This document shows positions 5,773-30,129 of a stretch of 35,166 nucleotides of DNA, piece by piece. The notes below the pieces were generated by a model that saw nothing but the letters and a program-made list of their open reading frames with translations, was not told the DNA's origin and made no database searches. Made by a program: the position numbers and the translations under genes. The stretch is from a virus, in IMG/VR virus record IMGVR_UViG_3300028831_000629, positions 1 to 35,166 of that record; one strand, 5' to 3'. The number at the start of each line of letters is the position of its first letter. Positions within the stretch are counted from its first letter, which is position 1.

Positions 5773-6036
5773 GTGGCCGCCGAGGACGACATCCGCGCCG
5801 GGCTGCTCGCCCAAGCCGACCAGGACTGCGCCGCCGCCTACCACGACGTGATCACCCTGGCCCGCGACTGCCACGACCTGGACATCATCGAAGCCACCCG
5901 CCGCCTCGGCCTGCACCTCGCCGACCGGATCAGCCCCGACGGGCTCGCCTTCACCCTGGCCTACTTCGCGTTGCTGGCCGCCCGCACCCCACGCCGCAGC
6001 CAGCACGGAGGCCGCGATGGAGGCCGCGATGCCTAG
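5773..6036 (+). CDS. 87-aa hypothetical protein
   Basis: GTG 5773 has a good ribosome-binding site, GAGGAA at 5761-5766, overlapping the thyX stop. The 87-residue product is helical and acidic in its first 70 residues, with DxxxxxYHDVITLARDCHDLDII in the centre interrupted only by ordinary residues. It ends in a Gly/Arg/Asp tail (GGRDGGRD) that comes from a 12-bp tandem duplication containing the start of the next gene. No family is recognised. The 20-nt overlap with the radical SAM gene suggests coupled expression. Confidence 0.65.
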   Translation: MAAEDDIRAGLLAQADQDCAAAYHDVITLARDCHDLDIIEATRRLGLHLADRISPDGLAFTLAYFALLAARTPRRSQHGGRDGGRDA

Positions 6037-8923
6037 CCCGGTGCAGATCCACAAGTTCCTCGACCAGCACAGCCACCGCATGGACCTGCCCGCCCAGTAC
6101 CTGGGCGACGAACCCAACGCCCGCGGCACCGACTGGGACAGCGCCGCCGTGCGCTGGTGCATGCTCGCCTCCTGGCCCTACGAGGCCGCCGCCGGCAACT
6201 CCTCCATCCCGGCCGTCTACAGCGCCATCAACGACGCCGGCTACCTGTGCGACCGGTTCTACCTGCCGGCCACCCCCCGCGACCTGAAGCTGCTCGACAA
6301 GCACGGCATCGGCGCGTTCGGCATCGAATCCAAGCACCCGCTCACCGACTTCGACGTGGTCGGCTCCTCCATCAGCTATCCGGTGCTGTCGATGAGCTAC
6401 CTGAAGCTGCTGAGCATGTCCGGCATCCCGGCCCGCTGGCGCGACCGCGAACCCGACCCGCTCGACGGGCAGGCCCGCCACCCGATGGTCATCGTCGGCG
6501 GCCAGTGCTACGGCGCCCCCGAGGTCCTCGCCCCGGTCGTGGACTGCTGGTGGCTCGGCGAAGTCGAGGACGAACCCGGCAACCCCGGCATCGGCGCCGT
6601 CTGCCACCGCATCGCCGGCTTCAAGCAGTCCGGCGCCTGGACCGGCGACCGGATCGGCTGCTACCGCGACCTGGCCCGCGAATTCAGCTTCCTGTACTTC
6701 CCCCGCTTCGTCGACGTGCACTACGGCTACGAGGACCGCAGCCACGCCGGGGTCGGCCCGCACCCGTCCAAGCAGGTCATCGGCTACAGCAGCAACCTGA
6801 GCGGCATGCGGCTGCCGCTGCGGCGCCGCTACGTCAAAAACCTCGACCAGGCCGCCCCGCTCGTCGCGCCGCCGCTGCTGTACAGCGACCCGGCCATGGG
6901 CTCCGGCGACCTGGAGGTGGGCCGCGGCTGCCCCGCCTGGTGCTCCTTCTGCGCCCTGACCTACCGGCAGAAGCCCTACCGGCAACGAAGCGTCGACGCC
7001 GTCCTGGACTACGCCGACCAGTTCGCCCGCAACATGGGCTCGGTGCGGATGGCCCCGTTCAGCCCCGACTTCCCCATGTACACCCAACGCAAGAAACTCA
7101 TCGCCGCGCTGCTCGAGAACGTATCGGATGAAGTCGATGCGGCCACGATGCGGGTCGACGACTTCATCGCCGATCACGACTTCATCCTGCTGCAGGTGCA
7201 CGGCGGCATGGACGCCGTCACCCTCGGCGTGGAGGGCAACAGCCAACGCATGCGTGACCTGGTCGGCAAGGGCACCGCCGACGCCGACATCATCGAGGCC
7301 GTCACCCGGGGCATCCGCGCCGGCATCCGCCGCTTCAAGCTGTACATGATCTCCAACCTGCCCGGTGAGGACGTCGGCGACGTCTACCGCATCCTCAAGT
7401 TGGCCAAAGACCTCGCCGACGTGCGCGAGTCGATGCACCAGCCCACCGTGCGTATCCAGTTCTCCTGGACCCCGTTGATGATCGAGGCCAACACCCCGTT
7501 CCAGTGGTTCGCGCCCACCCTGGCCAGCCGCATCCTCGGCGACGTCTGGGACGAATTCCGCGACCTGAAAATCGACTTCAAGCTCGGCGCCAAGGCCGAA
7601 CCCAACAAGGCCGCCTTCTTCCAGCTGTGCCAGCGCGCCTCCCGCGACGTCGGGGAGGCCCTCGTCGACGCCATGCTGCAGCTCGATCAGGCGTGCTGGG
7701 GCGGCGTCCCGCGCACCTTCCGCGCGCTGCTGGAGGACAAGCTGCACGAGCGGGGCTTCCGCAACGGCTTCGGCGACTGCTTCGACGAACGCGCCAAGCA
7801 CGACATGTTCGGCTGGGAACACATCGACCAGGGCATCTCCAGCGAACTGCTGTGGGTCACCTACCTGCAGATGCGCGAATTCATCGAGCAGACCGACAGC
7901 CACACCTACGACCTGAACTTCGACGCCGACTACCACGGCAATGAGTGGATCGAACGCTGCGACACCAAGTGCCAGGGCAAGACCTGCGGCGCCTGCGACC
8001 ACGCCGACCTGAAGATCCGCACCGGCTACATCCGGGCCGCCGCCGCGGAACGCCACGTCGACCTCACCGCGCTACGCCCGATCGACCAGCGCAGCCAGGC
8101 CGTGCGCATCCGCGCCCGCGTCGCCAAGCCCGCCCGGTACCGCTTCGTGGACAACCGGCACTGGCGCTTCGCCGTGCGCCGGGCCGCCTTCCGCGCCCAG
8201 CACGCCCTGGCCACCCCGTACGGCATCACCAAACGCTCGATCCGCTTCGCCAGCGACGAAATCAAGCACCGCGACTGGACCGCCGGGGTCGACTACCTCG
8301 AATTCGGGCTCACCGGCAGTGCCGCCGCCGCCGATCCGGCTGCGCTGCAGCGCTTCCTCGACGCGATGAACCACGAACTGCACCCGTGGCTTCACATCGG
8401 CGACTGGCTGCCGCACCCGGCCGGCGCCACCACCATGCGCGCCGCCGTCGACCTCAACCTGTTCGAGCTGGCCGTCGACGACAACCCCGACCGGGTCCTG
8501 GCCCGGCTGGCCGGCTGGCGGCACGCCGAACACGTCCCGATGCGGCTGCCCATCGTCGGCGGCTACTTCGCCCCCGCCTCCGAAGAGGTCGACGCCAAGA
8601 CGTTCGTCGAGGACCTGTGGCTGATCAACGACCACGCCCAACCCAAACTGCGGATGCTGGTGCGCGGCCGGCCCAACCCGTACAACGTCTACGCCGCCCT
8701 GATGGGCCGCCCGTCCTGGATCGACGCCGCCCGGCTGCCGGCCACCCGGCTGGAAGCCTTCACCGACACCGACCGCGCCCAACAGGACTTCCTGCGCCCC
8801 AACTGCCACAGCTGCACGCTGCAGATCCCCACCACCATCCTCGACCGGCCCTACCACCCCACCCACTGCCCGCGCTGCCTGGACGAGGCCGCCGGCCGGC
8901 GCATCCAGGAGCCGCACCGGTGA
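6017..8923 (+). CDS. B12-binding-like radical SAM protein with DUF2344-like C-terminal domain
   Basis: The 968-residue protein resembles the large uncharacterised TIGR03960-type radical SAM proteins throughout. Residues about 22-200 match their N-terminal B12-binding-like Rossmann region (AQYLGDE, IGAFGIESKHPLTDFDVVG, MVIVGGQCYGAPEVLAPVVD). The [4Fe-4S]/SAM motif is C305-x3-C309-x2-C312 (CPAWCSFC). A cysteine cluster follows at C648, C652, C657 and C660. Residues about 694-830 resemble the radical SAM-linked domain DUF2344 (RIRARVAKPARYRF, WRFAVRRAAFRAQ, DYLEFGLTG). A zinc-ribbon pair C930-x2-C933/C951-x2-C954 ends the protein. Cobalamin binding is not certain, because no DxHxxG motif was seen. 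The substrate is unknown; RNA, protein or nucleotide modification are all possible. ATG 6029 is an equally good start, because GGAGGCCGCGAT is duplicated. Confidence 0.85.
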   Translation: MEAAMPSPVQIHKFLDQHSHRMDLPAQYLGDEPNARGTDWDSAAVRWCMLASWPYEAAAGNSSIPAVYSAINDAGYLCDRFYLPATPRDLKLLDKHGIGAFGIESKHPLTDFDVVGSSISYPVLSMSYLKLLSMSGIPARWRDREPDPLDGQARHPMVIVGGQCYGAPEVLAPVVDCWWLGEVEDEPGNPGIGAVCHRIAGFKQSGAWTGDRIGCYRDLAREFSFLYFPRFVDVHYGYEDRSHAGVGPHPSKQVIGYSSNLSGMRLPLRRRYVKNLDQAAPLVAPPLLYSDPAMGSGDLEVGRGCPAWCSFCALTYRQKPYRQRSVDAVLDYADQFARNMGSVRMAPFSPDFPMYTQRKKLIAALLENVSDEVDAATMRVDDFIADHDFILLQVHGGMDAVTLGVEGNSQRMRDLVGKGTADADIIEAVTRGIRAGIRRFKLYMISNLPGEDVGDVYRILKLAKDLADVRESMHQPTVRIQFSWTPLMIEANTPFQWFAPTLASRILGDVWDEFRDLKIDFKLGAKAEPNKAAFFQLCQRASRDVGEALVDAMLQLDQACWGGVPRTFRALLEDKLHERGFRNGFGDCFDERAKHDMFGWEHIDQGISSELLWVTYLQMREFIEQTDSHTYDLNFDADYHGNEWIERCDTKCQGKTCGACDHADLKIRTGYIRAAAAERHVDLTALRPIDQRSQAVRIRARVAKPARYRFVDNRHWRFAVRRAAFRAQHALATPYGITKRSIRFASDEIKHRDWTAGVDYLEFGLTGSAAAADPAALQRFLDAMNHELHPWLHIGDWLPHPAGATTMRAAVDLNLFELAVDDNPDRVLARLAGWRHAEHVPMRLPIVGGYFAPASEEVDAKTFVEDLWLINDHAQPKLRMLVRGRPNPYNVYAALMGRPSWIDAARLPATRLEAFTDTDRAQQDFLRPNCHSCTLQIPTTILDRPYHPTHCPRCLDEAAGRRIQEPHR

Positions 8924-10501: not shown

Positions 10502-11641
10502 GTGGAGCAGCTCGCACTGAAGTACCGGCCCACCGGCTTCGACGACCTGGTGGGCCAACGCGCCGTGAACTACCCGCTGCGGGCCATGGTCGAGCAGGAC
10601 AAGGTGCCCACCGCCCTGCTGTTCAAGGGCAGCCGCGGCACCGGCAAGACCACCACCGCCCGGATCCTCGCCGCCGCGCTGAACTGCGAGCAGCGGCCCG
10701 GCCCGTGCGGGCAGTGCGTGTCCTGCAAGGCCGTCTTCGACGGCACCAGCCTCGACCTGGTCGAGATCGACGCCGCCTCCAACGGCCTGGTCGACGACAT
10801 CCGGGCGCTGCGCCAGCACGTGCTCTACGGCGTCGGCGGCCAGTACCGGGTGGTCGTGCTCGACGAGGCCCACTCGATGAGCCAGGCCGCGTTCAACGCA
10901 CTGCTGAAGACCCTCGAAGAACCCCCACCGGGCACCGTGTTCATCCTGGCCACCACCGAACCCGGCCGGATCATGCCCACCGTGCGGGACCGGTGCATGC
11001 CCTTCACCTTCACCCGCATCGGCATCGCCGACATGACCGCCCGGCTCGCGCACATCTGCCAGGCCGAGTGCCAAGGCGACGTCGAACCGGCGCTGCTGCA
11101 CGCCCTCGCCGAACACGCCGACGGATCCATGCGCGACGCCATCATGGTGCTCGACCAGCTGCTGCGCATCGGGATCACCACCCTGGCCGGCTACCACGAC
11201 CTGATCGGCGACGCCGATCACGGCCCGGCCCTGCTCGACCCGATCACCCGCGGCGACATCGCCGCCGCCTACACCACCCTCGACGCCATCCTCACCCGCA
11301 CCGGCGACCCCAACGCCGTGGCCACCGCCCTGGCCGGCACCCTGCGCGACCTGCAGGTGCTGCGAGCCGGCGGCCAGCTCGCCATGCAAGGTGAGGCCCT
11401 GGCCGCCCGCACCGCCCTCGCCGAACGCCTCGACCCGCCGGCCATCTTCGCCGCCCAGACGGTCCTGTGGGACCTGCGCACCAAGATCCGCCCCGGCGAC
11501 GACCCGCGGAGCAGTCTCGACCTCGCGGTAGCGATGATCATGAGTAAGCTCGTCCGGCCGGCCGCCACGGCCGCCTCCAGCGCAGCGCCGGCAGCGGCCC
11601 GCAAACTGACCCTCGCGGACATGGCGGCCCTGCGCCGATGA
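10502..11641 (+). CDS. dnaX: DNA polymerase III gamma-type clamp loader ATPase
   Basis: This 379-residue protein begins ALKYRPTGFDDLVGQ, as in bacterial DnaX. It has Walker A G43-SRGTGK-T50, the DnaX zinc module C62/C69/C72/C75, and Walker B D121-E-A-H124. LLKTLEEPPPGTVFILATTE leads to R164 in D163-R-C165, where bacteria have SRC. The length fits the gamma form; the tau extension that contacts the polymerase and helicase is missing. A phage-encoded clamp is at 2791-4065, so loader and clamp may be matched, with delta subunits borrowed from the host. GTG 10502 has a strong GGGGGAGG site at 10487-10494. Its stop overlaps the glycosyltransferase start (ATGA). Confidence 0.9.
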   Translation: MEQLALKYRPTGFDDLVGQRAVNYPLRAMVEQDKVPTALLFKGSRGTGKTTTARILAAALNCEQRPGPCGQCVSCKAVFDGTSLDLVEIDAASNGLVDDIRALRQHVLYGVGGQYRVVVLDEAHSMSQAAFNALLKTLEEPPPGTVFILATTEPGRIMPTVRDRCMPFTFTRIGIADMTARLAHICQAECQGDVEPALLHALAEHADGSMRDAIMVLDQLLRIGITTLAGYHDLIGDADHGPALLDPITRGDIAAAYTTLDAILTRTGDPNAVATALAGTLRDLQVLRAGGQLAMQGEALAARTALAERLDPPAIFAAQTVLWDLRTKIRPGDDPRSSLDLAVAMIMSKLVRPAATAASSAAPAAARKLTLADMAALRR

Positions 11642-13852: not shown

Positions 13853-14503
13853 ATGAGACCCGCCCCGAGCGACCCGCCGGAGATCGAGCGCCGCCTGTGG
13901 GCCGGTTTCCACGGCCACGTCGGCTGGGACATCGGCGCCAACTGCGGGCAAAGCCTCGATGAGATGATCGGCCGGTTCAAGCAGGTCGTCGCGTTCGAAC
14001 CGGCCATCGAATGCAAACCGCACCTGCTGAACTGGGCGACCCACCCCAACGTGTTCCTCTGCGACTACGCCGTGTCCGACACCGACGGGGACATCGTCCT
14101 CGCCGCCCTCCCCGACAAGATCGACACCGGGCAGCTCGTGACCCCCGGCACGCACGGCATGGAATGGGACCCCGACCGCCCCGACGCGGTAGCCCGCACC
14201 GTGCCCGCCCGCACCGTGGACACCCTCGTCGACGACGGCCTGCCCGCCCCCGACTTCATGAAGATCGACGTCGAAGGCCACGAACTGCAGGTCCTCACCG
14301 GCGCCTGGCAGACCCTCACCGACTTCGCCCCCGACCTGCTCATCGAATTCCACACCCCGCAGCTGCGCGAGGCGTGCATCGAATGCCTCCAACAGCACGG
14401 CTACACCGAGATCGCCACCGTGCGCCATCCGCACTACCGGCCCGGCAGCGACATGTGGCACCAGCACGGCTGGCTCAAAGCGCGCGGAGAGGTCAACCGA
14501 TAG
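13853..14503 (+). CDS. FkbM-family methyltransferase (second)
   Basis: A 216-residue methyltransferase. SAM motif I is D26-I-G-A-N-C-G32 (VGWDIGANCGQS), followed by VVAFEPAIE, and the family motif FMKIDVEGHELQVL with D139, E141 and G142. This is the classic FkbM pattern, clearer than in the gene at 12435. The start has a strong AAGGAG (13842-13847) that overlaps the previous stop. The two FkbM proteins are divergent, so they probably methylate different positions rather than being recent duplicates. Confidence 0.88.
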   Translation: MRPAPSDPPEIERRLWAGFHGHVGWDIGANCGQSLDEMIGRFKQVVAFEPAIECKPHLLNWATHPNVFLCDYAVSDTDGDIVLAALPDKIDTGQLVTPGTHGMEWDPDRPDAVARTVPARTVDTLVDDGLPAPDFMKIDVEGHELQVLTGAWQTLTDFAPDLLIEFHTPQLREACIECLQQHGYTEIATVRHPHYRPGSDMWHQHGWLKARGEVNR

Positions 14504-17608: not shown

Positions 17609-19570
17609 ATGAGTGACTTCGCCGAACTGCTGCGCCAGGCCGCCGCCACCCCACCCCCGGCCGGCGACATCGACGTGCCCACCGACTTCGCCGAGGAGCC
17701 GGTCAGCCTCACCGTCTTCGTGCAGGACCCCGGCTTCCTGAAGAACCCGCCGCTGTCCCCGGTGCAGTACGAGGCGGTGCGCCACATCGAGCGGATCTAC
17801 TACAACGGCTGGTTCCTCGGCGACGACGGCGCCCCCTTCTACCGGCCCGGCCGCGACACCTACCGCCAGCTCGCCGAGCACCTCGACGCCGGCAAGCGCG
17901 CCACCACCCTGCACGTCGGTGCGGTCTCCGCGTGGCGGGACGAACCGTACTGGTCGCAACCCACCCGGATGATCAATTTCGCGACCCTGCAGTGGGGCAA
18001 GGGCGGCGGCAAGGACCACATCTGCCGCGTCGCGTCGATGCGCATCGCCTACCTGCTCATGTGCCTGGAATCGCCGCAGCAGTACTACGCGCTGCCCGAG
18101 CAGGACACCATCCACCTGCTCAACGTCGCCTCCAGCTCCGGGCAGGCCCAGCAGGCGTTCTTCACCCCGATCGTGCGGGCCGTCAACCGCAAGGGCAACT
18201 GGTTCGCCGGCAAGTGCGAACCCCGGCAGAACACCATCTCCTACGCCAAGAACGTCGAATCGATCTCCGGGCACTCCGACGCGGAAAGCCAGGAGGGCCT
18301 CAACCTGATGCTCGGCATCGCCGACGAGATCGACGCCTTCAAGTCCAAGAAGGAGATGGCGGTGCGCCGCGGCGCGTCGGCCCGCGAACCCACCAAGAGC
18401 GCCGAGGGCATCCTCAACATGATGCGCACCTCGGCGGCCACCCGCTTCCCCGAGGTGTTCAAGCAGATCCGCATCTCCTACCCGCGCTACCTGGGCTCCA
18501 CCATCCAACGCCTCACCGAGGAGGCCCAGGCCGACATCGACCAGCACGGCATCGACTCACGCCACTACGTGAGCGGGCCGTTGGCGACTTGGGAGGTCAA
18601 CCCCCGTGTCAAAGGCAAAGAAGCGTTCGCGAACGACTACCGCGAAGACCCGGTCATGGCTCGTAGCAAGTACGAGTGCCGCCCTGCTCGGGCTATCAAT
18701 CCTTACTTCCGCAATCATCAGGCGCTCGATGCGTGCTTCCAGCACGTCGCGCACCCGCCGGTCGAAGTCGCGTACCGGCTCGAAGAAAAAGTAGCCCGCC
18801 CGGTCTGGGTGCCGCAGTACCACTTCGCCGCCGACTTCTACCCGGTGCGCGGCGCCATCTACGCGATGCACGCCGACATGGCCGTCTCCGGTGACCGGGC
18901 CGGCGTGGCCATGGCCCACGTGGTGCGCTACGCCGAACACGAAACCTTCGCCGAGGACGAGGACGGCGCCCGCCACCCGATCCGGGAGATCCGCCCGCAC
19001 GTCAAGGTCGACTTCGTCATCTCCTACGCCGCCGACCCGTCGGCCACCCCGGCCCGGGAGATCCAGATCCGGTGGGCGCGGCAGCTGGCCTTCGAGCTGA
19101 TCCGCCGCGGCTTCAACGTGCGCTACTTCTCCTTCGACTCCTTCCAGAGCACCGACAGCATGCAGATCCTGGAGTCCAAGGGCATCGAATGCCGCAAGGT
19201 CTCCACCGACCTGCATGAAGACCCCTGGCGCAACCTGCGCGACCTGGCCTACGAAGGCCGCCTGAGCATCCCCCGCCCGACCGGGCCGGACCCCGAACAC
19301 CCGGCGCCCATGCTGCTGCGCGACGAACTGCTCAGCCTCACCCGGCTGCCCAACGGGCGCATCGACCACCCCTCCGACGGCAGCAAGGACGAGGCCGACG
19401 CCCTCGCCTGCGCCGTGCTCGGCGCCGTCGGCCTCGGCGGCGCCGAGGAGGAGAGCGGCGAACGCAGCTACGCCGGCATCCCGGACGTCACCGTCGGGCG
19501 GGTCTTCGACCTGCCGCTGGGCACCAACCTGGCCGCCATCTGGCAGCACGAGGTCCCCTCACCGTTCTAG
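17609..19570 (+). CDS. terL: Terminase large subunit
   Basis: This 653-residue packaging motor has a Walker A-like loop G130-KGGGK-D136, the phage variant in which Asp follows the P-loop Lys. Walker B is LMLGIA-D239-E240. The C-terminal RNase H-like nuclease has acidic residues D423 (HADMAVSGD), the FSFDSFQS strand and D594/D597 (KDEADALACA). The ATPase pumps DNA into the prohead and the nuclease cuts the concatemer. ATG 17609 follows the fibre gene by 9 nt. DNA at 18600-18720 is slightly lower in GC than its surroundings but the frame continues. Confidence 0.92.
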   Translation: MSDFAELLRQAAATPPPAGDIDVPTDFAEEPVSLTVFVQDPGFLKNPPLSPVQYEAVRHIERIYYNGWFLGDDGAPFYRPGRDTYRQLAEHLDAGKRATTLHVGAVSAWRDEPYWSQPTRMINFATLQWGKGGGKDHICRVASMRIAYLLMCLESPQQYYALPEQDTIHLLNVASSSGQAQQAFFTPIVRAVNRKGNWFAGKCEPRQNTISYAKNVESISGHSDAESQEGLNLMLGIADEIDAFKSKKEMAVRRGASAREPTKSAEGILNMMRTSAATRFPEVFKQIRISYPRYLGSTIQRLTEEAQADIDQHGIDSRHYVSGPLATWEVNPRVKGKEAFANDYREDPVMARSKYECRPARAINPYFRNHQALDACFQHVAHPPVEVAYRLEEKVARPVWVPQYHFAADFYPVRGAIYAMHADMAVSGDRAGVAMAHVVRYAEHETFAEDEDGARHPIREIRPHVKVDFVISYAADPSATPAREIQIRWARQLAFELIRRGFNVRYFSFDSFQSTDSMQILESKGIECRKVSTDLHEDPWRNLRDLAYEGRLSIPRPTGPDPEHPAPMLLRDELLSLTRLPNGRIDHPSDGSKDEADALACAVLGAVGLGGAEEESGERSYAGIPDVTVGRVFDLPLGTNLAAIWQHEVPSPF

Positions 19571-19625: not shown

Positions 19626-21707
19626 ATGACGAGCCCGACCAAGGCGGCCCCCAGCAAGCCGGCGCCGATCAAGGCGGCCGGCGGGGTCATCCCGAAGCCG
19701 ACCCCGGACACCGAGGTCGGCGTCTCGGCCTACCTGCCCTTCGTCGTGCCCTACCAGAACGCCTGGGAGGCGCTGCGCACCGACGAGGTCACCGTCAAGC
19801 AGCTGCAGGCGATGCGCCGCACCGACGGTCAGGCCCGCGCCCTGTACCGGCTGATCACCCTGCCCATCCGCTCGGCGCTGAAGACCGCCACCTTCGTGCC
19901 GGAGGACGACGTCGAAGGCGGCGAGGAAGAGGCCACCTTCATCCGGCAGATGTTCACCCTGCCCGCCTCCGGCGGCGGCATGACCGTGCCGTTCAACAAG
20001 GTGATCGCCCAGATGCTGCTGGCCGTGTTCGACGGGTTCACCGCCTTCGAGATGGTCTACACCGTCCCCGACACCGGCCCGCTGAAGGGCAAGTGGACGC
20101 TCAAGAAGCTCGCCCAGCGGCCCGCCGAAACGCTCACCTTCCTGCTCGACGACAACAGCGAATTCGCCGGCCTGCGCCAGCAGACCATGTACATGGGTCA
20201 ACACATCGACCGGAAGCTGCCCGGCGAGCACTGCGTCTACTACGCGGCCAACGAAGAGGAGAAGCCGTTCTACGGCCAGTCCTACTTCCAGTCCGCGTTC
20301 GCCCACTGGGACAAGAAGTTCCGCCTCTACGTCATCGCCCATCTGGCCGCCCAGCGCGCCGCCGTGGGCACCCGCATCGGCAAGCTGCCGGCCAACCCCA
20401 ACCGGGAGGAGAAGGCCGCCTTCCAGAAGGGCCTGGCCGACCTCGGCGCCTTCCAGTGGATGACCGTGCCCTCGGACTACGAGGTCGAATCGCTGCGCGA
20501 GGCCACCGGCTTCGACTTCCTCGCCCTGGTCAACCACCACAACTCGCAGATGTCCAAGAGCGTCCTCGCCGCGTTCTTCGACAAGGAGCAGGGCGGCGGC
20601 GACTCCGGCAAGCTGGTCGACTTCGGCCAGCAGTCCGACGCGCTGTTCCTGCTCATGCTGGCCACCATCATGGGCGAGATCGAAGAGGTCATCAACCAGA
20701 AGATCATCCCCCGATTCATCGACTGGAACTTCGACAGCGGCAAGTACCCCAAGTTCCAGTTCGGCTCCCTCTCCCAGGCCGAGAAGCAGGCCATGCTCGA
20801 CCTGTTCAAGACCCTGTCGGTCGCCGGGCAGAGCCTGACCATCCGCCCCGAGTTCGTGCACGAGCTGGAGAAGCAGGTCAGCGAGGAACTCGGCCTGGAA
20901 ATCGACTGGGACACCGTCGAAGCCGAGATGGAGCAGGAGAAGCAGGCCCAGGCCATGGAGGAGGAGCTGGCCGCCCAGCAGCAGGCCGGCGCCATCCCCG
21001 GCGACCAGCCGGCGGGGGCCGGTGCGCCCGCGGCCGGGCCGGTCGAGGTCGACCCGTCGCTGGTGCCCGAGGGCTTCACCCTCAGCGACCAGCAGGCCGA
21101 TGAGGACCCGGCGGTGCTGGCCCTGACCGGGCTGGCCCGCGACCTGTTCGACGAGGCCACCGACGCCCTCGGGCTGACCCGCGGGGTGCCCACCTCCGGC
21201 GGCCCCAAGTACGTGCGCACCGCCGCCGGGGCCAAGGTCTACGGCGTGCCGGTCGGCACCCCGATCACCCGCGACATCGCCGAACGGGCCGGCGGGCACG
21301 GCGTCAAGGGCAAGGTCCACGGCGGGGTACGCGGCAAGGACCGCGGCGCCGCCAACACCGGCAAGGAGGTCCTCGGCGGCGGCCTGGGCGCCAAGGCCCA
21401 ACACCCGGGCAACGTCATCACCGACCCCAACACCCAGGAACCGGCCGGCGTCACCCCGACGCGCATCCTGGGCAACCCGGCCGCCCCCGGCGTGCAGCTG
21501 CTCGACTTCGGCGACGGCACCGTGGCGCTGCGCGACGCCAACGGCAACCTCTCGGCCCGGCAACGCTTCCAGATCGACAAGTTCCTCAAGCTGGGCTGGC
21601 AGGTCGCCCGCGGCACCACCGCGAGCCGCGCCACGAAGGCCGCCGACCAGAAGGCCGCCGCCGCGACCGACGGGAAGGCCGCCGGCAAGGCCGCCGGCAC
21701 CAAGTGA
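19626..21707 (+). CDS. Portal protein (DUF935/Mu gp29-like) with C-terminal extension
   Basis: Of 693 residues, about 30-440 match DUF935-type portals: RALYRLITLPIRSALKTATF, then GFTAFEMVY, then YGQSYFQSAFAHWDKKFRLY, then LREATGFDFLALVNHHNSQMSKSVLAAFFD. A Gln/Glu-rich helix and a disordered linker follow. Residues about 525-693 form an extra module (PKYVRTAAGAKVYGVPVGTPI, VQLLDFGDGTVALRD, RFQIDKFLKLGWQVARG) and a Lys/Ala tail. The portal ring forms the DNA channel; the extension may be a recruited or internal head domain. GGGGAG precedes ATG 19626. The stop overlaps the next start (GTGA). Confidence 0.88.
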   Translation: MTSPTKAAPSKPAPIKAAGGVIPKPTPDTEVGVSAYLPFVVPYQNAWEALRTDEVTVKQLQAMRRTDGQARALYRLITLPIRSALKTATFVPEDDVEGGEEEATFIRQMFTLPASGGGMTVPFNKVIAQMLLAVFDGFTAFEMVYTVPDTGPLKGKWTLKKLAQRPAETLTFLLDDNSEFAGLRQQTMYMGQHIDRKLPGEHCVYYAANEEEKPFYGQSYFQSAFAHWDKKFRLYVIAHLAAQRAAVGTRIGKLPANPNREEKAAFQKGLADLGAFQWMTVPSDYEVESLREATGFDFLALVNHHNSQMSKSVLAAFFDKEQGGGDSGKLVDFGQQSDALFLLMLATIMGEIEEVINQKIIPRFIDWNFDSGKYPKFQFGSLSQAEKQAMLDLFKTLSVAGQSLTIRPEFVHELEKQVSEELGLEIDWDTVEAEMEQEKQAQAMEEELAAQQQAGAIPGDQPAGAGAPAAGPVEVDPSLVPEGFTLSDQQADEDPAVLALTGLARDLFDEATDALGLTRGVPTSGGPKYVRTAAGAKVYGVPVGTPITRDIAERAGGHGVKGKVHGGVRGKDRGAANTGKEVLGGGLGAKAQHPGNVITDPNTQEPAGVTPTRILGNPAAPGVQLLDFGDGTVALRDANGNLSARQRFQIDKFLKLGWQVARGTTASRATKAADQKAAAATDGKAAGKAAGTK

Positions 21708-22672
21708 GCGACGACGCCCTGCTGCGCACCCTGGAGCAGCGGGTCCGCACCCTGGTCGACGCCGCCCTGCGGGCGATACCGGCCCAGGTCGGCGGCCACC
21801 TGACCGCCCAGCTCAACGCCCAGCCGGACGCCTCCGGCGCGCAGATCGTCAGCGCGCCGGAGGTCCACGACGCCCTCGTCACCGCCCTGGACGCCGCCCG
21901 CGGCAAGGCCGAAGCCGCCATCCGCGCCGGCTTCAAGGCCGCCGCCCAGGCCGGCATCGGCCGGGCCGGCGCCCAAGCCCGGGACCTCGGCTTCGACGCC
22001 GGCTCCATCACCGCACCCACCGCCACCCTCGACGCCATCCTGCGCGACCTGCAGACCGCCTTCGACACCGCGCGCCTGGACATGCTCGACACCGTCCGGG
22101 CCGGCCTGGACGATGCCGCCGGCAGCGACCCAGCGGCCCGCGTCCTCATCGCCCGGGGCGCCCTGGAACGTGCCCGCCGCCGCCTCAGCGTGCGCGCCAG
22201 CGCCGCCGCAGCCGTCGCCGTACACCGCGGCTACACCGACGGGCAAAGCAGCGTCCACGACGCGCTGAAGGCCGCGCACCCCTACCTGCGGCTGACCAAG
22301 CGGTGGGAGGTCCGCTCGGCCACCCCCTGCCCGGCGTGCGCCGCCCTGCACGGCACCACCGTCGACCTCGACGCCCAGTTCGACGCCACCGCCGGGCGCA
22401 CCGCCGACTACAGCCCGCCCCGGGTCTGGCAGGACCTGCACGGCCCGCCCCGGCACCCCAACTGCCGCTGCCGGCTCGTCCTGGACCCCTCCGAAGCCAG
22501 CACGGCGCTGCGCCACCAGGCCGCCCAACCCACCCCCGGGCGGGCCGCCCACCTGGCCGCCGCCGACATCCGGCGCATGCCCGAGGCCCAGTACCAGGCC
22601 CTGAGCACCTTCCTGGCCGCCGCCGTGGCCCGGCTCAAGGCGCTGCTCAAGGACATCGGCCGTGGGCACTGA
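21704..22672 (+). CDS. Minor head protein (Mu gpF/SPP1 gp7-like)
   Basis: A 322-residue protein. The long Ala-rich helical first half is followed by the MuF signature: C209-P-A-C212-AALHG, then HPNC254-R-C256-RLV. These residues bind a metal in the gpF-type C-terminal domain. The family binds the portal and is carried inside the head, sometimes fused to effector domains. It is coupled to the portal gene by a GTGA overlap. Confidence 0.9.
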   Translation: MSDDALLRTLEQRVRTLVDAALRAIPAQVGGHLTAQLNAQPDASGAQIVSAPEVHDALVTALDAARGKAEAAIRAGFKAAAQAGIGRAGAQARDLGFDAGSITAPTATLDAILRDLQTAFDTARLDMLDTVRAGLDDAAGSDPAARVLIARGALERARRRLSVRASAAAAVAVHRGYTDGQSSVHDALKAAHPYLRLTKRWEVRSATPCPACAALHGTTVDLDAQFDATAGRTADYSPPRVWQDLHGPPRHPNCRCRLVLDPSEASTALRHQAAQPTPGRAAHLAAADIRRMPEAQYQALSTFLAAAVARLKALLKDIGRGH

Positions 22673-22982: not shown

Positions 22983-25900
22983 GTGGCCGAGAAGTACAGC
23001 GTGGACACGGCACCGATCATCTACGACGACCCGTTCGTGGTCGAGCCGCTCAACGCGGACAGCGTCGCCGCGAAGGTGAAGATCATCGAGAGCCTGGCCG
23101 CCTCCGCCCAGCAGGTGATCACCAACGCCAAGCCGATCGCCGACTGGACCTGGACGAAGAACTGGACCACCAACCCCGGCTACTACATCACCACGAACCA
23201 GTGGCCGTCCTACTGGGGGCCGTCCGGGTCCGCCGTCATCACGCTCAACGACGAGCCCACCACCAAACCCGTCTTCGTGCCCGACCCGGCGCCGGCCCCC
23301 GAGCCCGCTGCCGTCGAGGCGGCTGGGGCCATGGAACCGGTGCCCGCGCCGAATCCGCTGCCGATCAAGAAGAAGCCGGCGCTGGCCAAGACGGTCCGCC
23401 TCGGCGGGCAGTCCATCGCCACCAAGCACATCCGCGCCGCCATCGCCGTGCTGCAGGCCGCTTCCGGGCTGGCCGTGTACCGGCCGCTGCGCACCGCCGG
23501 CAGCCCCCTGGCCGCCCTCGACCTGCGCGCCATCGCCGCCGCCCAGGCCGCCTGGTACCCGACCGTCGAATGCGCCAAGCAGGGGCTCAAGGCCACCGTC
23601 CTGGCCGCACTACGCCGGGCCATCGACCCGACCCGCCGCGGCCCGTTCGCCGTCGACGACGAGGGCTACTGCGTACCGATCACCGGCGCGCAGAACGACA
23701 TCCGGGCCATCACCAAGGCGCTGGGCAACGGCCGCGTCGTCGGGCGCGGGATCGCCGCGATGAGCAACGCCGCCCAGCTGGACTGGCTGGAAGCCTGGCA
23801 CATCGGCGACCTGGCCCACTGCTACGCCCTGGAAGCCGAGCACTGCACCAAACCCAACCCGGCCCACCCCGGCGGCCCGGACCATCCCGAGACCCAGCAG
23901 GTGATCTGGTCCCCGGCCGTGCCCGGGGAGATCCCGGCCGGCGTGGCCATCGAGGGCGACTGGTCGGCGCCGAGCGACCCGTGGAGCAAGGCCGAGGTCG
24001 ACAACTACCTCATCGCCGCCCGGATGGCCTACCCGCAGTCGCTGTCCAACCTGTACCGGCGGCACTGGGCGATCAGCCACCTGCGCGGCGACAAGCGCGA
24101 GGTCGACAACATCAGCCGCAAGGCCAAGCGCGAAAACGCCATCGCCTGGAAGATCTCTCCGCCGCTGCAGGCCACCGTGCTGCCGCCGCGGCCCGGCTAC
24201 CCGGCCCTCCTGTTCGAAGGCGTCCACCCCAAGCAGTGGTCCACCGGCGCCCTGGCCGCCTACGCCGCCGACCACGACCTGATCCTGCCCCGCCGCCACA
24301 GCCGGCAGGTCCTCGCCGTGCAGGCCCACCGCGAGGAAGCCGCCCGGCGCAAAGCGATCGAAGACGCCAAGCTCAAATTCAGCTACGCCCCCGACCAGCC
24401 GCCGCTGTCCGGCTTCCACCGCAAGGCCGTGCTGGTCGACCAGCACCAGCAGCGTTGGCTGTTCAAACCCGCGCCCAACGAGGCCGCTCGCTTCCGGCCG
24501 GAGACCGAACACGAGGCGCACCAGCTGGCCCGCGCCTGGGGTTTCCGCACCACGGCCAGCCACCTGGACACCTTTGACGGCAAGTACGGCCAGCTGCAGG
24601 CCATGCTCGACGCCGAACGCAACCTGCTCGGCTTCCACGGCGCCGACTTCGCCGGGCTCACCCGTACCCAGCTGTGCGCCGTGGCCCGCGAACACCTCCT
24701 CGACTGGGCCATCGACAACGACGACTGCCACGGGGAGAACATCGTCATCACCACCGACGGCGCCGCGGTGGGCATCGACAAGGGCCGCGCCTGGCGCTAC
24801 TTCGGCGGCTGGCCCGGCCTGTCCGGCGACGCCAAGGCCAACACCAACTGCCACCTCGTCTACACCGCGCTGTACGAGGCCATCGCCGACGGGCACCTGG
24901 AGCGCGACACCGTCGACGCGATGTACCGCTCGGTCATCGCCCAGGCCCGGCGCATGCAGCTGCTGCCCGACACCATCCTGGCCGGGCACATCAGCCGGGC
25001 CGTGGCCAACCGGCCGCACTACAAGCCCTCCTCGTACCAGACCCCGGTGCCGCACGCGCCGAGCAGCGCCGAGGAACTCATCGCCGCGGCGACCGCACGC
25101 AAGAACCGGCTCGTCGAGGACTTCACCGACCTATGGACCCGCATCTACGAGCGGGCCGGCTGGACGCTGCCCGAGCAGCACAAGACCCTCGGGCTCAACC
25201 CGCAGGGCCACCCGCTGCACGCCGGACTGCACAGCCCCGACCTGCACGCCGCCGTCGCCGCCACCAAGTCCTTCGGCACCGCCACGTTCCTGGCCGGGCA
25301 GCACATCGAAGACGCCCATCTGCTGCTGTGGCGCGAACGTCGCCCGGACGGCGTGTACGCCATCCGCGGCCAATGCAAACTGCGCGAACCCGTGTACAGC
25401 GCCTTCGCCGGCTGGTGCCAGCAGCGCGCCAAAGAGGCGGTCCCGGGTGTGCATCAAGACAAGCTGCTGGAGCAGCGCAGCTACCTGGCCATCATCAACG
25501 CCGCCAAGACCGTCTCGTACCACTCTCAGGACGGCGAGTACAACCCGGGGAAGATGGCCGACCTGGCCGGCGCCAAGACGCAGCTGCTCGAATGCCGCAA
25601 GCGCAACCTGCCGGGCAGTCCGCACGATGCGTGGGCCGCCGCCTGCACCGAGATGGCCGATCGCTACCTCGGCTACATCACCGCCGTGGAAGCGCACCTG
25701 GCCGCCCACACCAAGAGCAGCGAGGGCGACTTCCCGCCCTACCAGTGGAGCGTGCCACCGCCCACCCCGCCGGCTCCGACCGGGCCGAAGGTCAGCCGGG
25801 TACCGGCCAGCCGCCCGGCGGCCACCCTCGACGATGTGGTCACCCTGCAGCCCGACGGGGAACTGGCGCTGTCCGGCTCCGACCTCGTCGACCGCCAGGG

Positions 25901-27026
25901 CCAGGTCTACGGCCAGCCCGGCTACATGTACCGCATCGAACTGGACACCGGAGAGCACCTGACCTACCGCTGCTCAGCCACCGAGACCCCGAAGGCGCTG
26001 TGCGGGCAGCTCGAATTCACCATCGACGACGCCGCGAACATCGCCGCCGGCCTGGCCAACATCGACCAGGCGCTGCGCGAGGCCGGCGTCTGCCTCGACC
26101 CGGCCGACGCGATCGACCTGGAGCTGTTCTACTGGCGGCACCTGGCCGGTATCTACGCCGCGCGGGCCGACACCAAACCCGGCGGGTACGCCCGCGGCGG
26201 CCTGCCGCAGGACCCCCGCTACACCACCTTCTGGGCGGCCGAGGCCGTCGCCGCCAAAGCCGAGGAGAACGCCGACAGCCGCGAGGAGGTGATCGCCGCG
26301 TTGCGGGCCGCCTTCGCCCACCTGAGCAGCACCGAACAGATCGACGCCTTCATCGCCGCCGACGCCCACCTGCCCCGGTTCATGCACTTCGACCTGCGCC
26401 AGCCCGGCCAGCCCTGCGGCAAGCCGTACTGGGTGCGCTTCGACGTCACCGACGAGCAGTGGCGCAGCCGGCCCATGCCCACCATCCACTACCGCAGCGG
26501 CCCGATCTACCCGGCCAGGACCGGCGCGGCGATGGCCACCGAAGCGCGGGTGCGCACCTTCGCCATGTGGAAGGGCGGCATGTCCAGCGTCGACGACATG
26601 CACCACGGCTCCAGCGCGTTCCTGTTCACCCGCCAGAACCAGGAGGAGGGCGAACACAAACCCAACGTCTACCTCAGCCCGCGGGTGCTGACCCGCACCC
26701 ACAACTACGCCTACCCCGACGACCGGTACGGACGCATCAGCGAGCGGGCCACCCACTCGTGCTACGTCTTCGACGCGATGACCAACCAGAGCGAGAGCTG
26801 CAACGAGCTGCTCATCAAGGACGCGGTCAGCCTGCTCGACGACATCGAGATCCTCATCTTCGGCAACCCGGCCAAACGCGACGCCGCCGAAGCCGGCCTC
26901 GCCGCGCTGGGCATCACCGCCATCCGCGGTGTGCCCGTCGCCACCCGGTTCATCGTGCGCGGCGACTACCCGGCCTACGTCGCCGCGGTCAAGGCCGCCC
27001 GCGCCTCGTACCATCAAGACTGGTAG
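22983..27026 (+). CDS. Polyvalent virion protein with kinase-like domain and possible ADP-ribosyltransferase
   Basis: A 1347-residue multidomain protein downstream of portal and MuF genes. After an N-terminal region and a Pro/Ala linker (about 97-131), residues about 475-665 resemble PI3/4K/HipA-type kinases. There is a strand with K495 (RWLFKPAP), a catalytic loop D581-C-H-G-E-N586, and a metal aspartate D599 in GIDKG. Residues about 1165-1290 carry an order like that of R-S-E ADP-ribosyltransferases: R1171 (IHYRSG), S1201-S1202 (GGMSSVDD), and E1275 (CNELLIK). Helical spacers separate the modules. Phage polyvalent proteins of this type are packaged and can be ejected with DNA. The kinase call is fair; the ART call is tentative. 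Substrates are unknown. Confidence 0.7.
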   Translation: MAEKYSVDTAPIIYDDPFVVEPLNADSVAAKVKIIESLAASAQQVITNAKPIADWTWTKNWTTNPGYYITTNQWPSYWGPSGSAVITLNDEPTTKPVFVPDPAPAPEPAAVEAAGAMEPVPAPNPLPIKKKPALAKTVRLGGQSIATKHIRAAIAVLQAASGLAVYRPLRTAGSPLAALDLRAIAAAQAAWYPTVECAKQGLKATVLAALRRAIDPTRRGPFAVDDEGYCVPITGAQNDIRAITKALGNGRVVGRGIAAMSNAAQLDWLEAWHIGDLAHCYALEAEHCTKPNPAHPGGPDHPETQQVIWSPAVPGEIPAGVAIEGDWSAPSDPWSKAEVDNYLIAARMAYPQSLSNLYRRHWAISHLRGDKREVDNISRKAKRENAIAWKISPPLQATVLPPRPGYPALLFEGVHPKQWSTGALAAYAADHDLILPRRHSRQVLAVQAHREEAARRKAIEDAKLKFSYAPDQPPLSGFHRKAVLVDQHQQRWLFKPAPNEAARFRPETEHEAHQLARAWGFRTTASHLDTFDGKYGQLQAMLDAERNLLGFHGADFAGLTRTQLCAVAREHLLDWAIDNDDCHGENIVITTDGAAVGIDKGRAWRYFGGWPGLSGDAKANTNCHLVYTALYEAIADGHLERDTVDAMYRSVIAQARRMQLLPDTILAGHISRAVANRPHYKPSSYQTPVPHAPSSAEELIAAATARKNRLVEDFTDLWTRIYERAGWTLPEQHKTLGLNPQGHPLHAGLHSPDLHAAVAATKSFGTATFLAGQHIEDAHLLLWRERRPDGVYAIRGQCKLREPVYSAFAGWCQQRAKEAVPGVHQDKLLEQRSYLAIINAAKTVSYHSQDGEYNPGKMADLAGAKTQLLECRKRNLPGSPHDAWAAACTEMADRYLGYITAVEAHLAAHTKSSEGDFPPYQWSVPPPTPPAPTGPKVSRVPASRPAATLDDVVTLQPDGELALSGSDLVDRQGQVYGQPGYMYRIELDTGEHLTYRCSATETPKALCGQLEFTIDDAANIAAGLANIDQALREAGVCLDPADAIDLELFYWRHLAGIYAARADTKPGGYARGGLPQDPRYTTFWAAEAVAAKAEENADSREEVIAALRAAFAHLSSTEQIDAFIAADAHLPRFMHFDLRQPGQPCGKPYWVRFDVTDEQWRSRPMPTIHYRSGPIYPARTGAAMATEARVRTFAMWKGGMSSVDDMHHGSSAFLFTRQNQEEGEHKPNVYLSPRVLTRTHNYAYPDDRYGRISERATHSCYVFDAMTNQSESCNELLIKDAVSLLDDIEILIFGNPAKRDAAEAGLAALGITAIRGVPVATRFIVRGDYPAYVAAVKAARASYHQDW

Positions 27027-27374: not shown

Positions 27375-28520
27375 ATGGCCGACGAACTTGTCATCGTGCC
27401 GTCCGACGGTGACGGCTACGTCGAACTGGCCCGCACCAAGCAGGGCCGGCTGTTCCGCAAGCACATCCTTTCCAAGGGTCCGCTGCTGCACCCGACCACG
27501 GGCGCGACGATCAGCATCGACGACAAGTTCGTCTCGACGCTGACCAAGAACTTCAACGACGGCGTGTGCGACATCGTCCAGGTCCCGCTGGCCAACGACA
27601 AGAACGAGCACAGCGAAGACCCGATGCGCAACATCGGCGAGGTCATCGGCATCGAAGCCAAGGACGACAAGGTCTACGCGGTCATCGACGCCCGCGACGC
27701 CACCGCCGCCGACAAGCTGGGCAAGACCCTGCTCGGCGCCTCGGCGATGCTGCACCTGGACTACACCAACACCAAAACCGGCCAGAAGGTCGGTCCGACG
27801 CTGCTGCACACCTGCGTCACCAACCGGCCCTACGTGACCGGTCTGGAGGATTACAAGGAGATCGTCGCAGCTACGTCCGATACATCTCAGCGAGCGGTAC
27901 TGCTCACCACCGCCCCGGCCCCGGCCGAGGTCGTGGAGGTCCCAGCACCGAGCACAACCACTGAGGAGACGGACGAAATGCCTGAGGCGACGACGACCAC
28001 CGAGACGCCAGTCAAGCCGTCTCTGGAAGAGCTGCTCAGCGTTCTGAAGGACGAGCACGGCATCGACGTGACCGGCCTGCAGGCCAAGGCCGCCGAAGGC
28101 GAGCAGGCCGCCGGGCTGTCCAAGACCATCGTCGACGCGCTCAGCGCCGCCGGTGTGGTCAAGCTGTCCAACACCGAGGCCGAGCAGGTCTCCAGCGAGG
28201 ACGTCGTCACCGCGGTCGCCGAGCTGGCCACCAACAACGTGACCCTCAGCAACCGGGTCCAGGCCCTGGAAAAGGCCGACGCGGAGCAGCGCGTCGACGC
28301 GCTCATCCGCTCGGGGCACATCAAGCCGGCGAAGAAGGACTTCTACGTCGAGCTCAAGCTGACCAACCCGACGGTCTTCGATCAGGTCCTCCCGGACGAG
28401 CCGATCGTCAAGCTCAACAACGAGACCGGCGTCACCCCGCCGCAGGACGAGGCCCACACGAAGAACGTGGACGACGAAATCGCCCGCCTCTCCGCGCTGC
28501 TGGCCTCCGGCAAGAAGTGA
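27375..28520 (+). CDS. Prohead protease-scaffold protein (Mu I/Z-like)
   Basis: A 381-residue protein. The N-terminal ~170 residues resemble Mu gpI-type head proteases: GPLLHPTTGATISIDD, GVCDIVQVPLANDKN, GEVIGIEAKDDKVYAVID, and GASAMLHLDYTN leading to GPTLLHTCVTNRPYVTGLEDY, the counterpart of the ALTNxPxIxG motif. A Thr/Pro/Glu linker (about 178-210) is followed by a helical scaffold region. In Mu the scaffold Z is made from an internal in-frame start, and a matching start exists here at 27978. The protein shapes and then clears the prohead interior. Decoration and capsid genes follow directly. Confidence 0.82.
   Translation: MADELVIVPSDGDGYVELARTKQGRLFRKHILSKGPLLHPTTGATISIDDKFVSTLTKNFNDGVCDIVQVPLANDKNEHSEDPMRNIGEVIGIEAKDDKVYAVIDARDATAADKLGKTLLGASAMLHLDYTNTKTGQKVGPTLLHTCVTNRPYVTGLEDYKEIVAATSDTSQRAVLLTTAPAPAEVVEVPAPSTTTEETDEMPEATTTTETPVKPSLEELLSVLKDEHGIDVTGLQAKAAEGEQAAGLSKTIVDALSAAGVVKLSNTEAEQVSSEDVVTAVAELATNNVTLSNRVQALEKADAEQRVDALIRSGHIKPAKKDFYVELKLTNPTVFDQVLPDEPIVKLNNETGVTPPQDEAHTKNVDDEIARLSALLASGKK
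27978..28520 (+). CDS. Internally initiated scaffold protein (same frame as protease)
   Basis: ATG 27978 is preceded by GAGGAG (27963-27968) with 9 nt spacing and lies precisely at the linker between protease and helical scaffold. The product would be 180 residues, acidic and helical, ending LSALLASGKK. Nested scaffold starts within head protease genes are known from Mu (I/Z) and lambda (C/Nu3). The evidence here is position plus ribosome-binding site. Confidence 0.55.
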   Translation: MPEATTTTETPVKPSLEELLSVLKDEHGIDVTGLQAKAAEGEQAAGLSKTIVDALSAAGVVKLSNTEAEQVSSEDVVTAVAELATNNVTLSNRVQALEKADAEQRVDALIRSGHIKPAKKDFYVELKLTNPTVFDQVLPDEPIVKLNNETGVTPPQDEAHTKNVDDEIARLSALLASGKK

Positions 28521-28567: not shown

Positions 28568-28963
28568 ATGGCAACCGTCTACGACAAGCTCCCGGTTCCG
28601 GGCTACTCGCAGGGTCCGGACTACACGGACACCGAGATCCTGTACAGCTACGCCGGGTTCACCCAGAAGGGTGTGACGCTCGCCGGCGGTCAGGGCATCC
28701 TCCCGGCAGGCACCGTGCTGGGCCGCAAGACCTCGGACAAGAAGTACTACGTCTACAACAACGGCGCCTCCACCGGTGTGGAGGTCGCCCGCGGCGTGCT
28801 GCGCCGGGCGGTGGACACCGGCTCGGCCGGCGCCGCCGACCAGCTCGCCAACATCGTCATCGCCGGCATCCTCAAGCTCAGCGCCGTCTCCGGCGCCGAC
28901 TCGGCCGCGCTGACCGACCTGGGCGCCGTGACCGACTCGGTCCGCGGCACCTTCAAGTTCTAA
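28568..28963 (+). CDS. Head decoration protein (lambda gpD-like)
   Basis: A 131-residue beta-rich protein with the pattern of lambda D/HDPD decoration proteins: TLAGGQGILPAGTVLGRKT, KKYYVYNNGASTGVEVARGVL, then IVIAGILKLSAV. These trimers clip onto capsid three-fold positions. Position between protease-scaffold and major capsid genes is canonical. AGAGGA lies 5 nt before ATG 28568. A GC hairpin follows its stop. Confidence 0.82.
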   Translation: MATVYDKLPVPGYSQGPDYTDTEILYSYAGFTQKGVTLAGGQGILPAGTVLGRKTSDKKYYVYNNGASTGVEVARGVLRRAVDTGSAGAADQLANIVIAGILKLSAVSGADSAALTDLGAVTDSVRGTFKF

Positions 28964-29091: not shown

Positions 29092-29104
29092 GTGTCCAAA
29101 GGAG
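29062..29104 (+). promoter_or_regulatory. Anti-Shine-Dalgarno/Shine-Dalgarno pair of the capsid gene
   Basis: CTCCTTT (29062-29068) is the perfect 7-bp complement of AAAGGAG (29098-29104), the ribosome-binding site of the capsid gene at GTG 29113. A competing small stem, CTCC/GGAG (29062-29065 with 29070-29073), would free the site. Together with the short ORF this has the form of a translational switch. Its use is inferred. Confidence 0.35.
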
Positions 29105-29112
29105 ACAGTGCC

Positions 29113-30129
29113 GTGCCTGACATCAGCCTGCTGGAGCCGATGGTTCTGCGCGGGGTCGTGGAGAAGTTCGTCGCCCCCGAGACGCTGATCATGCTCGGGC
29201 GCACTCCTCAGACGCCGTGGCCGTTCCCGAGCGTGACCTGGGACGTCATCAAGGGTTCGCGGATGGTCGCGAAGCCCAACGTGCCCAACTCCGAGGCGCA
29301 CATCGTGCCCCGGCTCGGCCGCAGCCAGGAATCGGCCGCGTTCGTCTACCTTCGCGAGAAGAAGGTCTTCGAACCGACCACCCTGCACTGGCTGCGCACG
29401 CCAGGCGAGATCGCCGCGACCAACGCCGAGAAGGCGGTCCTGCGTGAGGTCAACGACCTCAACCAGCGCTTCGACAACTTCGCCGAGTTCATGATCTGGG
29501 GTGCCCTCAAGGGCGCGCTGGTCCTGGACTACCCGGACGTGCAGGCCACGGTCGACTACAAGCTGCCGACCTCGCACAAGCCGAACCCGGGCACCGGCTG
29601 GGACACCGCGACGCCGCAGCAGATCGTTGCGGACATCCGGGCCTGGAAGCGGCTCATCGCCCGCGACGGGCGGGTGCCGGCCCGCGAGGCGTTTGTCACC
29701 GAGAAGACCCTCGCGCTCATCTTCGACTCCTTCGCCACCAAGGGCGTGGCCACCACGTTCATGGGCGCCTCGCTGCTCAGCGACCGGATGAAGGACCAGT
29801 ACTACAGCCAGGGCACGCTGCCGGGCTTCATGGGCCTGGACTGGAACACCGTCGAGACCGTCTACGACGACGACTCGGGCGTGTCCACCCTCTTCGTGCC
29901 GGACAACGCGCTGTTCATGGGCAACTACACCGACCAGCGCCCGATCGAGGTCATGATCGGCCCCACCGCCGACGACGAGGCCCCGGACGGGTTCACCGGC
30001 AAGTTCGCCAAGACCTGGAAGGAAAAGGACCCCTCCGCGCGGCAGTACCTGCTGGAGTGGAACCTCCTGCCGGTCATCACCCGGCCGGAGCAGATGATCT
30101 ACGTCGACGACGTCACCTCGACGAGCTGA
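29113..30129 (+). CDS. Major capsid protein (lambda gpE-like)
   Basis: The 338-residue product has the size and features of gpE/HK97-fold capsid proteins: an N-terminal arm (SLLEPMVLRGVVEKFVAPETL), P-domain strands (PRLGRSQESAAFVYLREKKVF), a spine helix (AEKAVLREVNDLNQRFDNFAEF) and a late A-domain part (VPDNALFMGNYTDQRPIEVMIG, then WKEKDPSARQYLLEWNLLPVI). GTG 29113 is chosen because AAAGGAGA precedes it by 7 nt; GTG 29092 lacks such a site. Decoration and protease-scaffold genes stand directly upstream, and two terminators directly downstream. Confidence 0.88.
   Translation: MPDISLLEPMVLRGVVEKFVAPETLIMLGRTPQTPWPFPSVTWDVIKGSRMVAKPNVPNSEAHIVPRLGRSQESAAFVYLREKKVFEPTTLHWLRTPGEIAATNAEKAVLREVNDLNQRFDNFAEFMIWGALKGALVLDYPDVQATVDYKLPTSHKPNPGTGWDTATPQQIVADIRAWKRLIARDGRVPAREAFVTEKTLALIFDSFATKGVATTFMGASLLSDRMKDQYYSQGTLPGFMGLDWNTVETVYDDDSGVSTLFVPDNALFMGNYTDQRPIEVMIGPTADDEAPDGFTGKFAKTWKEKDPSARQYLLEWNLLPVITRPEQMIYVDDVTSTS

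What the first reader, a model, noticed from the sequence alone, without database searches (positions are those of the whole stretch)
22983..27026. 1347-aa polyvalent protein with kinase-like core and possible ADP-ribosyltransferase end
A single gene behind portal and MuF carries a PI3/4K/HipA-like set (K495, D581-x4-N586, D599) and, 570 residues on, an R1171/SS1201-1202/E1275 order like ADP-ribosyltransferases. Two predicted modifying activities in one head-block protein suggest an effector carried in the virion and delivered at infection. Phage polyvalent proteins are known, but I do not know this combination as characterised.
Basis: partly seen in the sequence, partly recalled or inferred. 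Interest (0 to 1): 0.72.

Follow-up and report, generated by a model that had tools for sequence, protein, structure and literature searches.

The report
Phage-head kinase and ADP-ribosyltransferase protein
A phage gene beside the head genes encodes a large protein with a HipA-like kinase and, at its end, an ADP-ribosyltransferase resembling DarT (a bacterial enzyme that marks DNA); in many related phages both are fused to a head protein, so it is probably an enzyme pair carried in the virion and put into the host at infection.

Summary
The kinase-like core is real: K495, D581 and D599 are three of only 8 invariant columns across 26 homologous domains, and the profile retrieves genuine HipA proteins. 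The C-terminal domain is very probably an ADP-ribosyltransferase (ART), but not of the R-S-E type proposed: E1275 and S1201 are invariant in 44 homologues, R1171 and S1202 are not. A confident model of a homologous domain (pLDDT 86) gives only ARTs as its first 13 PDB matches, DarT (DNA ART) leading. The domain is widespread: of 80 viral loci read, 56 carry MuF, kinase, linker and ART in one polypeptide; several others, like the window, carry a MuF gene immediately upstream. Elsewhere the same kinase is paired with VIP2-type or DRAT-type ARTs; every complete protein found with the kinase alone as query carries an ART or ART-like C-terminus (one by motif only). Best reading: a virion-packaged, MuF-linked two-enzyme effector delivered with the DNA. 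Virion presence, substrates and activity are not shown. Head-packaged ART effectors are known; a HipA-like kinase joined to a DarT-like ART was not found in the papers searched.

The parts
22983..27026 (+). 1347-aa kinase + ART protein (P0001)
21704..22672 (+). MuF-like minor head protein gene directly upstream; in 56 of 80 homologous loci MuF is fused to the kinase-ART protein
23628..24317 (+). residues 216-445: domain found only in the window clade (L001, L007, L011), function unknown
24375..25175 (+). residues about 465-731: HipA/PI3-4K-like kinase domain
24465..24467 (+). K495 codon, predicted ATP-binding lysine (invariant, 26/26)
24723..24740 (+). D581-C-H583-G-E-N586, predicted catalytic loop (D and H invariant; N586 is N or Q)
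24777..24779 (+). D599 codon, predicted metal-binding aspartate (GIDKG; invariant)
25170..25817 (+). residues 730-945: conserved linker domain, also in the MuF-kinase-ART fusions; a similar stretch (read by eye) is in Pan1_15, which has no kinase
26403..27023 (+). residues about 1141-1347: DarT-like ADP-ribosyltransferase domain
26493..26495 (+). R1171 codon: predicted first-strand position; H in most relatives, not conserved
26583..26588 (+). S1201-S1202: S1201 invariant, S1202 usually P
26805..26807 (+). E1275 codon: invariant glutamate, predicted ART catalytic Glu
17609..19570 (+). terminase large subunit (weak match)
19626..21707 (+). portal protein
27375..28520 (+). Mu-like head maturation protease
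28568..28963 (+). head decoration protein
29092..30129 (+). major capsid protein

Best explanation
The gene encodes the enzyme half of a split MuF effector. During head assembly it associates with the portal/MuF complex and is packaged (inferred). On infection it enters the cell with the DNA (inferred). There the HipA-like kinase phosphorylates a host target, or the protein itself, and the C-terminal DarT-like domain uses NAD+ to ADP-ribosylate a host macromolecule (substrate unknown: DNA, RNA or protein), disabling a host function or a defence early in infection. Shown here by sequence and model: the ORF, kinase homology and intact kinase residues, an ART fold with invariant Glu in the family, fusion of the same module to MuF in homologues, and the head-gene context. 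Inferred: packaging, injection, catalysis, targets.
For: Kinase: HipA_C matches in 19 of 26 domain homologues and PI3_PI4_kinase in 7; in 247 genomes the kinase profile finds, besides phage-type proteins, smaller proteins of which four of six are HipA_C at 1e-36 to 1e-51 in Pfam. ART: AlphaFold model of a homologous domain, pLDDT 86, pTM 0.84; the first 13 PDB matches are all ARTs (DarT2, DarTG, DarT1, Mtb DarT, SopF, CopC, OspC3), six DarT entries at probability 0.99-1.00; viral matches include baculovirus ORF30/ORF32 and an iridovirus protein, and the literature relates the ORF28 ART family of such viruses to DarT (PMC9503650). The window domain belongs to that family: a profile of the five window-type domains finds the fused type at E 1e-24 to 1e-26 (alignments). 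MuF: 56 of 80 loci have MuF-kinase-linker-ART in one ORF; split members have MuF in the next gene upstream. Pairing: complete ORFs found with the kinase alone carry VIP2-type, DRAT or DarT-like ARTs, one of them (L015) by motif only; in an independent draw of 247 genomes, 4 of 5 strong kinase hits have the ART in the same ORF and the fifth has it interrupted.
Against: No virion proteomics and no activity assay. Foldseek E-values to DarT are modest (1.5e-3 to 1.8e-2; TM about 0.43-0.54), the good model is of a 23%-identical relative, and the window-led model is weaker (pLDDT 69; DarT top but E=0.58). No Pfam ART family matches the window domain. The window clade has R and F where most relatives have H and Y. 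The kinase fold itself was not modelled. No MuF is fused to the window protein itself.
Confidence: 0.6

Rival explanations
1. Kinase-gated ART: the kinase acts in cis, autophosphorylating or phosphorylating a host factor to switch the ART on only after delivery, so the two domains form one enzyme unit rather than two effectors.
For: The same kinase is kept beside different ART types (DarT-like, VIP2-type, DRAT-type), and all complete kinase proteins found had an ART or ART-like end; on the kinase tree the partner changes a few times while pairing persists.
Against: Pan1 has MuF and the ART without the kinase, so the ART can do without it; the search seeds were all ART-bearing.
Confidence: 0.2
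2. Lysogeny or superinfection toxin of the MuF polymorphic-toxin kind, acting on competitors or on the lysis-lysogeny decision rather than helping takeover.
For: MuF toxins with ART domains are known in temperate phages (PMC5576092); the mycobacterial kinase-ART proteins lie in prophages.
Against: Kinase-ART proteins also occur in phages recorded as isolates, Phrappuccino and Onyinye (whether temperate was not tested). No immunity gene was identified, but none was sought in detail.
Confidence: 0.12
3. Mainly structural: a head-completion or ejection protein whose enzyme-like domains are remnants.
For: Head-block position and MuF fusion.
Against: Kinase K/D/D and ART E are invariant over 26 and 44 divergent homologues.
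Confidence: 0.08

Closest known systems
Mycobacterial 'minor capsid and ADP-ribosyltransferase fusion proteins' (BK061308-BK061312) and Onyinye gp16
   Same: Homologous kinase domain followed by an ART; head-gene context; minor-head (VG15) N-terminus in the prophage one scanned
   Different: VIP2-type ART (PF03496) instead of DarT-like; kinase not named in the annotation; kinase only about 25% identical
DarT (DarTG toxin)
   Same: Closest solved fold; the invariant Glu strand lines up with the DarT Glu strand in the weak profile comparison
   Different: No PF14487 match; head-gene location; no DarG or NADAR partner recognised; substrate unknown
HipA
   Same: Pfam HipA_C similarity; K, D, N, D arrangement
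   Different: No HipA N-terminal domain seen; GIDKG motif is family-specific
Polyvalent proteins and MuF toxins (PMC5512222, PMC5576092, PMC9503650)
   Same: Large multidomain head-linked proteins with ART effectors
   Different: Not matched by Kinase-PolyVal or ART-PolyVal; HipA-like kinase with ART not mentioned in the passages read
Pan1_15 of Pseudanabaena phage Pan1
   Same: MuF and the same DarT-like domain, annotated head morphogenesis protein
   Different: No kinase match

Membership tests
HipA/PI3-4K-like kinase superfamily | ATP lysine, catalytic D-x4-N, metal-binding D | tested here: met
   26/26 K495, D581, D599; N586 is N or Q
HipA/PI3-4K-like kinase superfamily | Profile similarity both ways | tested here: met
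   HipA_C 5e-6 for the window domain, below the curated cut-off; family profile retrieves true HipA
HipA/PI3-4K-like kinase superfamily | Kinase fold in a structure | not tested
HipA proper (HipBA toxin) | HipA N-terminal domain | tested here: not met
   No Couple_hipA match in P0001; HipB neighbour not sought
ART superfamily | ART fold | tested here: met
   Homologous domain model; first 13 PDB matches are ARTs; window-led model weak
ART superfamily | Catalytic glutamate | tested here: met
   E1275 invariant 44/44
ART, R-S-E class | Conserved R, S-T-S and E | tested here: not met
   R1171 and S1202 not conserved
ART, H-Y-E class | H, Y and E | tested here: inconclusive
   H, Y and E in most relatives; R, F and E in the window
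DarT family (PF14487) | Pfam profile match | tested here: not met
DarT family (PF14487) | ssDNA ADP-ribosylation | not testable with these tools
   needs an assay
Polyvalent kinase / ART (PF18762, PF18760) | Pfam profile match | tested here: not met
Virion-packaged effector | Fusion or linkage to head genes | tested here: met
Virion-packaged effector | Presence in virions and injection | not testable with these tools
   needs proteomics

The most novel reading that the evidence does not exclude
Phages carry in their heads a DarT-like nucleic-acid ADP-ribosyltransferase, a fold best known from the bacterial anti-phage system DarTG, whose activity is gated by an attached HipA-like kinase, and inject it to modify host DNA or RNA.
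Probability: 0.15. Interest if true: 0.85.

Novelty: new variant of a known kind. Interest (0 to 1): 0.6.

Why it matters
It defines a widespread, largely unannotated class of head-linked phage enzymes that couples two modifying chemistries in one polypeptide, and shows that a fold related to the anti-phage toxin DarT is used by phages. The kept kinase-ART pairing with exchangeable ART types makes a concrete, testable question: does one enzyme control the other, and what do they modify in the first minutes of infection?

Tried and rejected
R-S-E triad: rejected, R1171 and S1202 vary. Direct Pfam, NCBIfam, PHROG or PDB-sequence identification of the C-terminus: nothing. Profile-profile comparison of the C-terminus with DarT gave the best score of the independent comparisons (P=0.011) but hhalign probability only 3.9%, so it is not significant by itself; two known ART families also fail to find each other this way, so the test is insensitive (one search used some DarT loci on the wrong strand and is void). 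Profile search of the kinase against PDB sequences: only weak HipA (E=0.86). Kinase-PolyVal and ART-PolyVal: no match. Phrappuccino (L015) C-terminal repeats look ART-like by motif only; profile comparison did not confirm. Pfam showed no macrodomain or NADAR in the window ORFs scanned with it; not every ORF was scanned with Pfam.

Full report
Observation. The window is a 35,166-base virus record. The ORF at 22983-27026 encodes 1347 aa and all named residues are correct. It lies in a head block: terminase, portal, MuF, this gene, Mu-like protease, decoration protein, major capsid. In the protein itself Pfam sees only a sub-threshold HipA_C match at 475-533.

Relatives. Full-length relatives are L001 (52% identity), L007/L010 and L011; L008 is a fragment. 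They keep a similar order around the gene; L001 and L007 have a MuF ORF just upstream and a Mu-like protease just downstream (L007 is just under the cut-off).

Kinase. Twenty-six homologous domains align; eight columns are invariant, among them K495, D574, W575, D581, H583, D599 and K600. Scanned singly, 19 of 26 match HipA_C and 7 PI3_PI4_kinase. A search of 247 genomes of one phylum with this profile gave five strong hits, all in 1539-1588 aa frames, and weak hits in six genomes; of the six weak proteins checked, four are strong HipA_C proteins and the other two match PI3_PI4_kinase weakly. It is a divergent HipA/PI3-4K-like kinase, not the described polyvalent kinase. The intact residues argue for an active enzyme; activity is inference, and the fold was not modelled.

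C-terminal domain. A profile of the five window-type domains found the same domain in MuF-kinase proteins of bacterial genomes (L034-L046) and in giant phage proteins. A search with the fused type gave 126 viral candidates, 80 kept and read. In 44 sequences G1199, S1201, D1205, G1209, F1215, R1217, D1247, G1250, E1275 and G1316 are invariant. Most relatives have a first-strand H (YSLVH, YGLYH), the window clade R (HYRSG), L011 neither; the alignment is uncertain there. A first model led by the window gave pLDDT 69 and DarT as a weak top match. A second, led by L037 with 44 sequences, gave pLDDT 86 and pTM 0.84. Its first 13 PDB matches are all ART-fold enzymes, led by DarT (that SopF, CopC and OspC3 belong to this superfamily is my own knowledge). 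Viral matches include baculovirus ORF30/ORF32, an iridovirus protein and a phage minor capsid protein. Published work relates the ORF28 family of such viruses to DarT (PMC9503650) and divides ARTs into H-Y-E and R-S-E classes (PMC11543638). The domain is therefore an ART, DarT-like in fold; it is not in Pfam DarT, and its substrate is unknown.

Architecture. In 56 of 80 loci one polypeptide holds MuF, kinase, linker and ART; many of the rest are cut by contig ends, and eight are complete without MuF. Seven of these have a separate MuF ORF next door, as does the window, while the eighth (L081) is a broken fused gene. Pan1 has MuF and the ART without kinase. With the kinase alone as query, complete proteins carry a DarT-like ART, PF03496 (P0003, L012, L018, L022, Onyinye) or DRAT (L020); L014, L016 and L017 are close relatives of P0003 and were not scanned singly; L015 has ART-like motifs only and L019 a weak DarT-like match. 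Four of five strong genome hits have the DarT-like domain in the same frame; in the fifth it is interrupted. On a quick kinase tree ART types mostly follow clades with a few changes; long branches make it provisional.

Mechanism. Fusion to MuF, which in SPP1 gp7 binds the portal and is in the capsid at one to two copies (PMC5576092), is the main argument for packaging; injection with DNA follows by analogy with T4 Alt (PMC5512222). Kinase and ART would then act on the host early. Whether the kinase has its own target or gates the ART is open.

Known or new. Head-packaged ARTs, MuF toxins and polyvalent proteins are known (PMC5512222, PMC5576092, PMC9503650). The words HipA, MuF and phage together returned two papers, neither on this subject by title and abstract (not opened), and the passages read name no HipA-like kinase joined to an ART. 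The library holds only open-licence papers, so absence is weak evidence. I rate it a new variant of a known kind.

Noticed in passing
window 2791-4065 and 10502-11641: DNA polymerase III beta-clamp-like protein and a clamp-loader AAA protein on the same phage record.
   Followed up: no
window 6017-8923: 968-aa radical SAM protein with Radical_SAM_N2 domain; role in a phage unclear.
   Followed up: no
window 4924-5769, 13853-14503, 573-1604: Thy1-like thymidylate synthase, FkbM-type methyltransferase and calcineurin-like phosphoesterase.
   Followed up: no
L122 and L125 (same 133-kb contig IMGVR_UViG_3300001567_000262): Two separate MuF-kinase-ART genes about 88 kb apart on one contig.
   Followed up: no
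L024 7194-9557: Two tandem kinase domains in one protein.
   Followed up: no
L015 / Phrappuccino gp195: Kinase followed by three repeated ART-like (RG, ExE) segments, annotated hypothetical.
   Followed up: partly
genome G136 C1:582582-584734: Kinase-ART gene of this family in a bacterial genome whose ART domain is interrupted by a frameshift or stop.
   Followed up: no
window 23628-24317: Residues 216-445 form a conserved domain restricted to the window clade, with no family match.
   Followed up: partly
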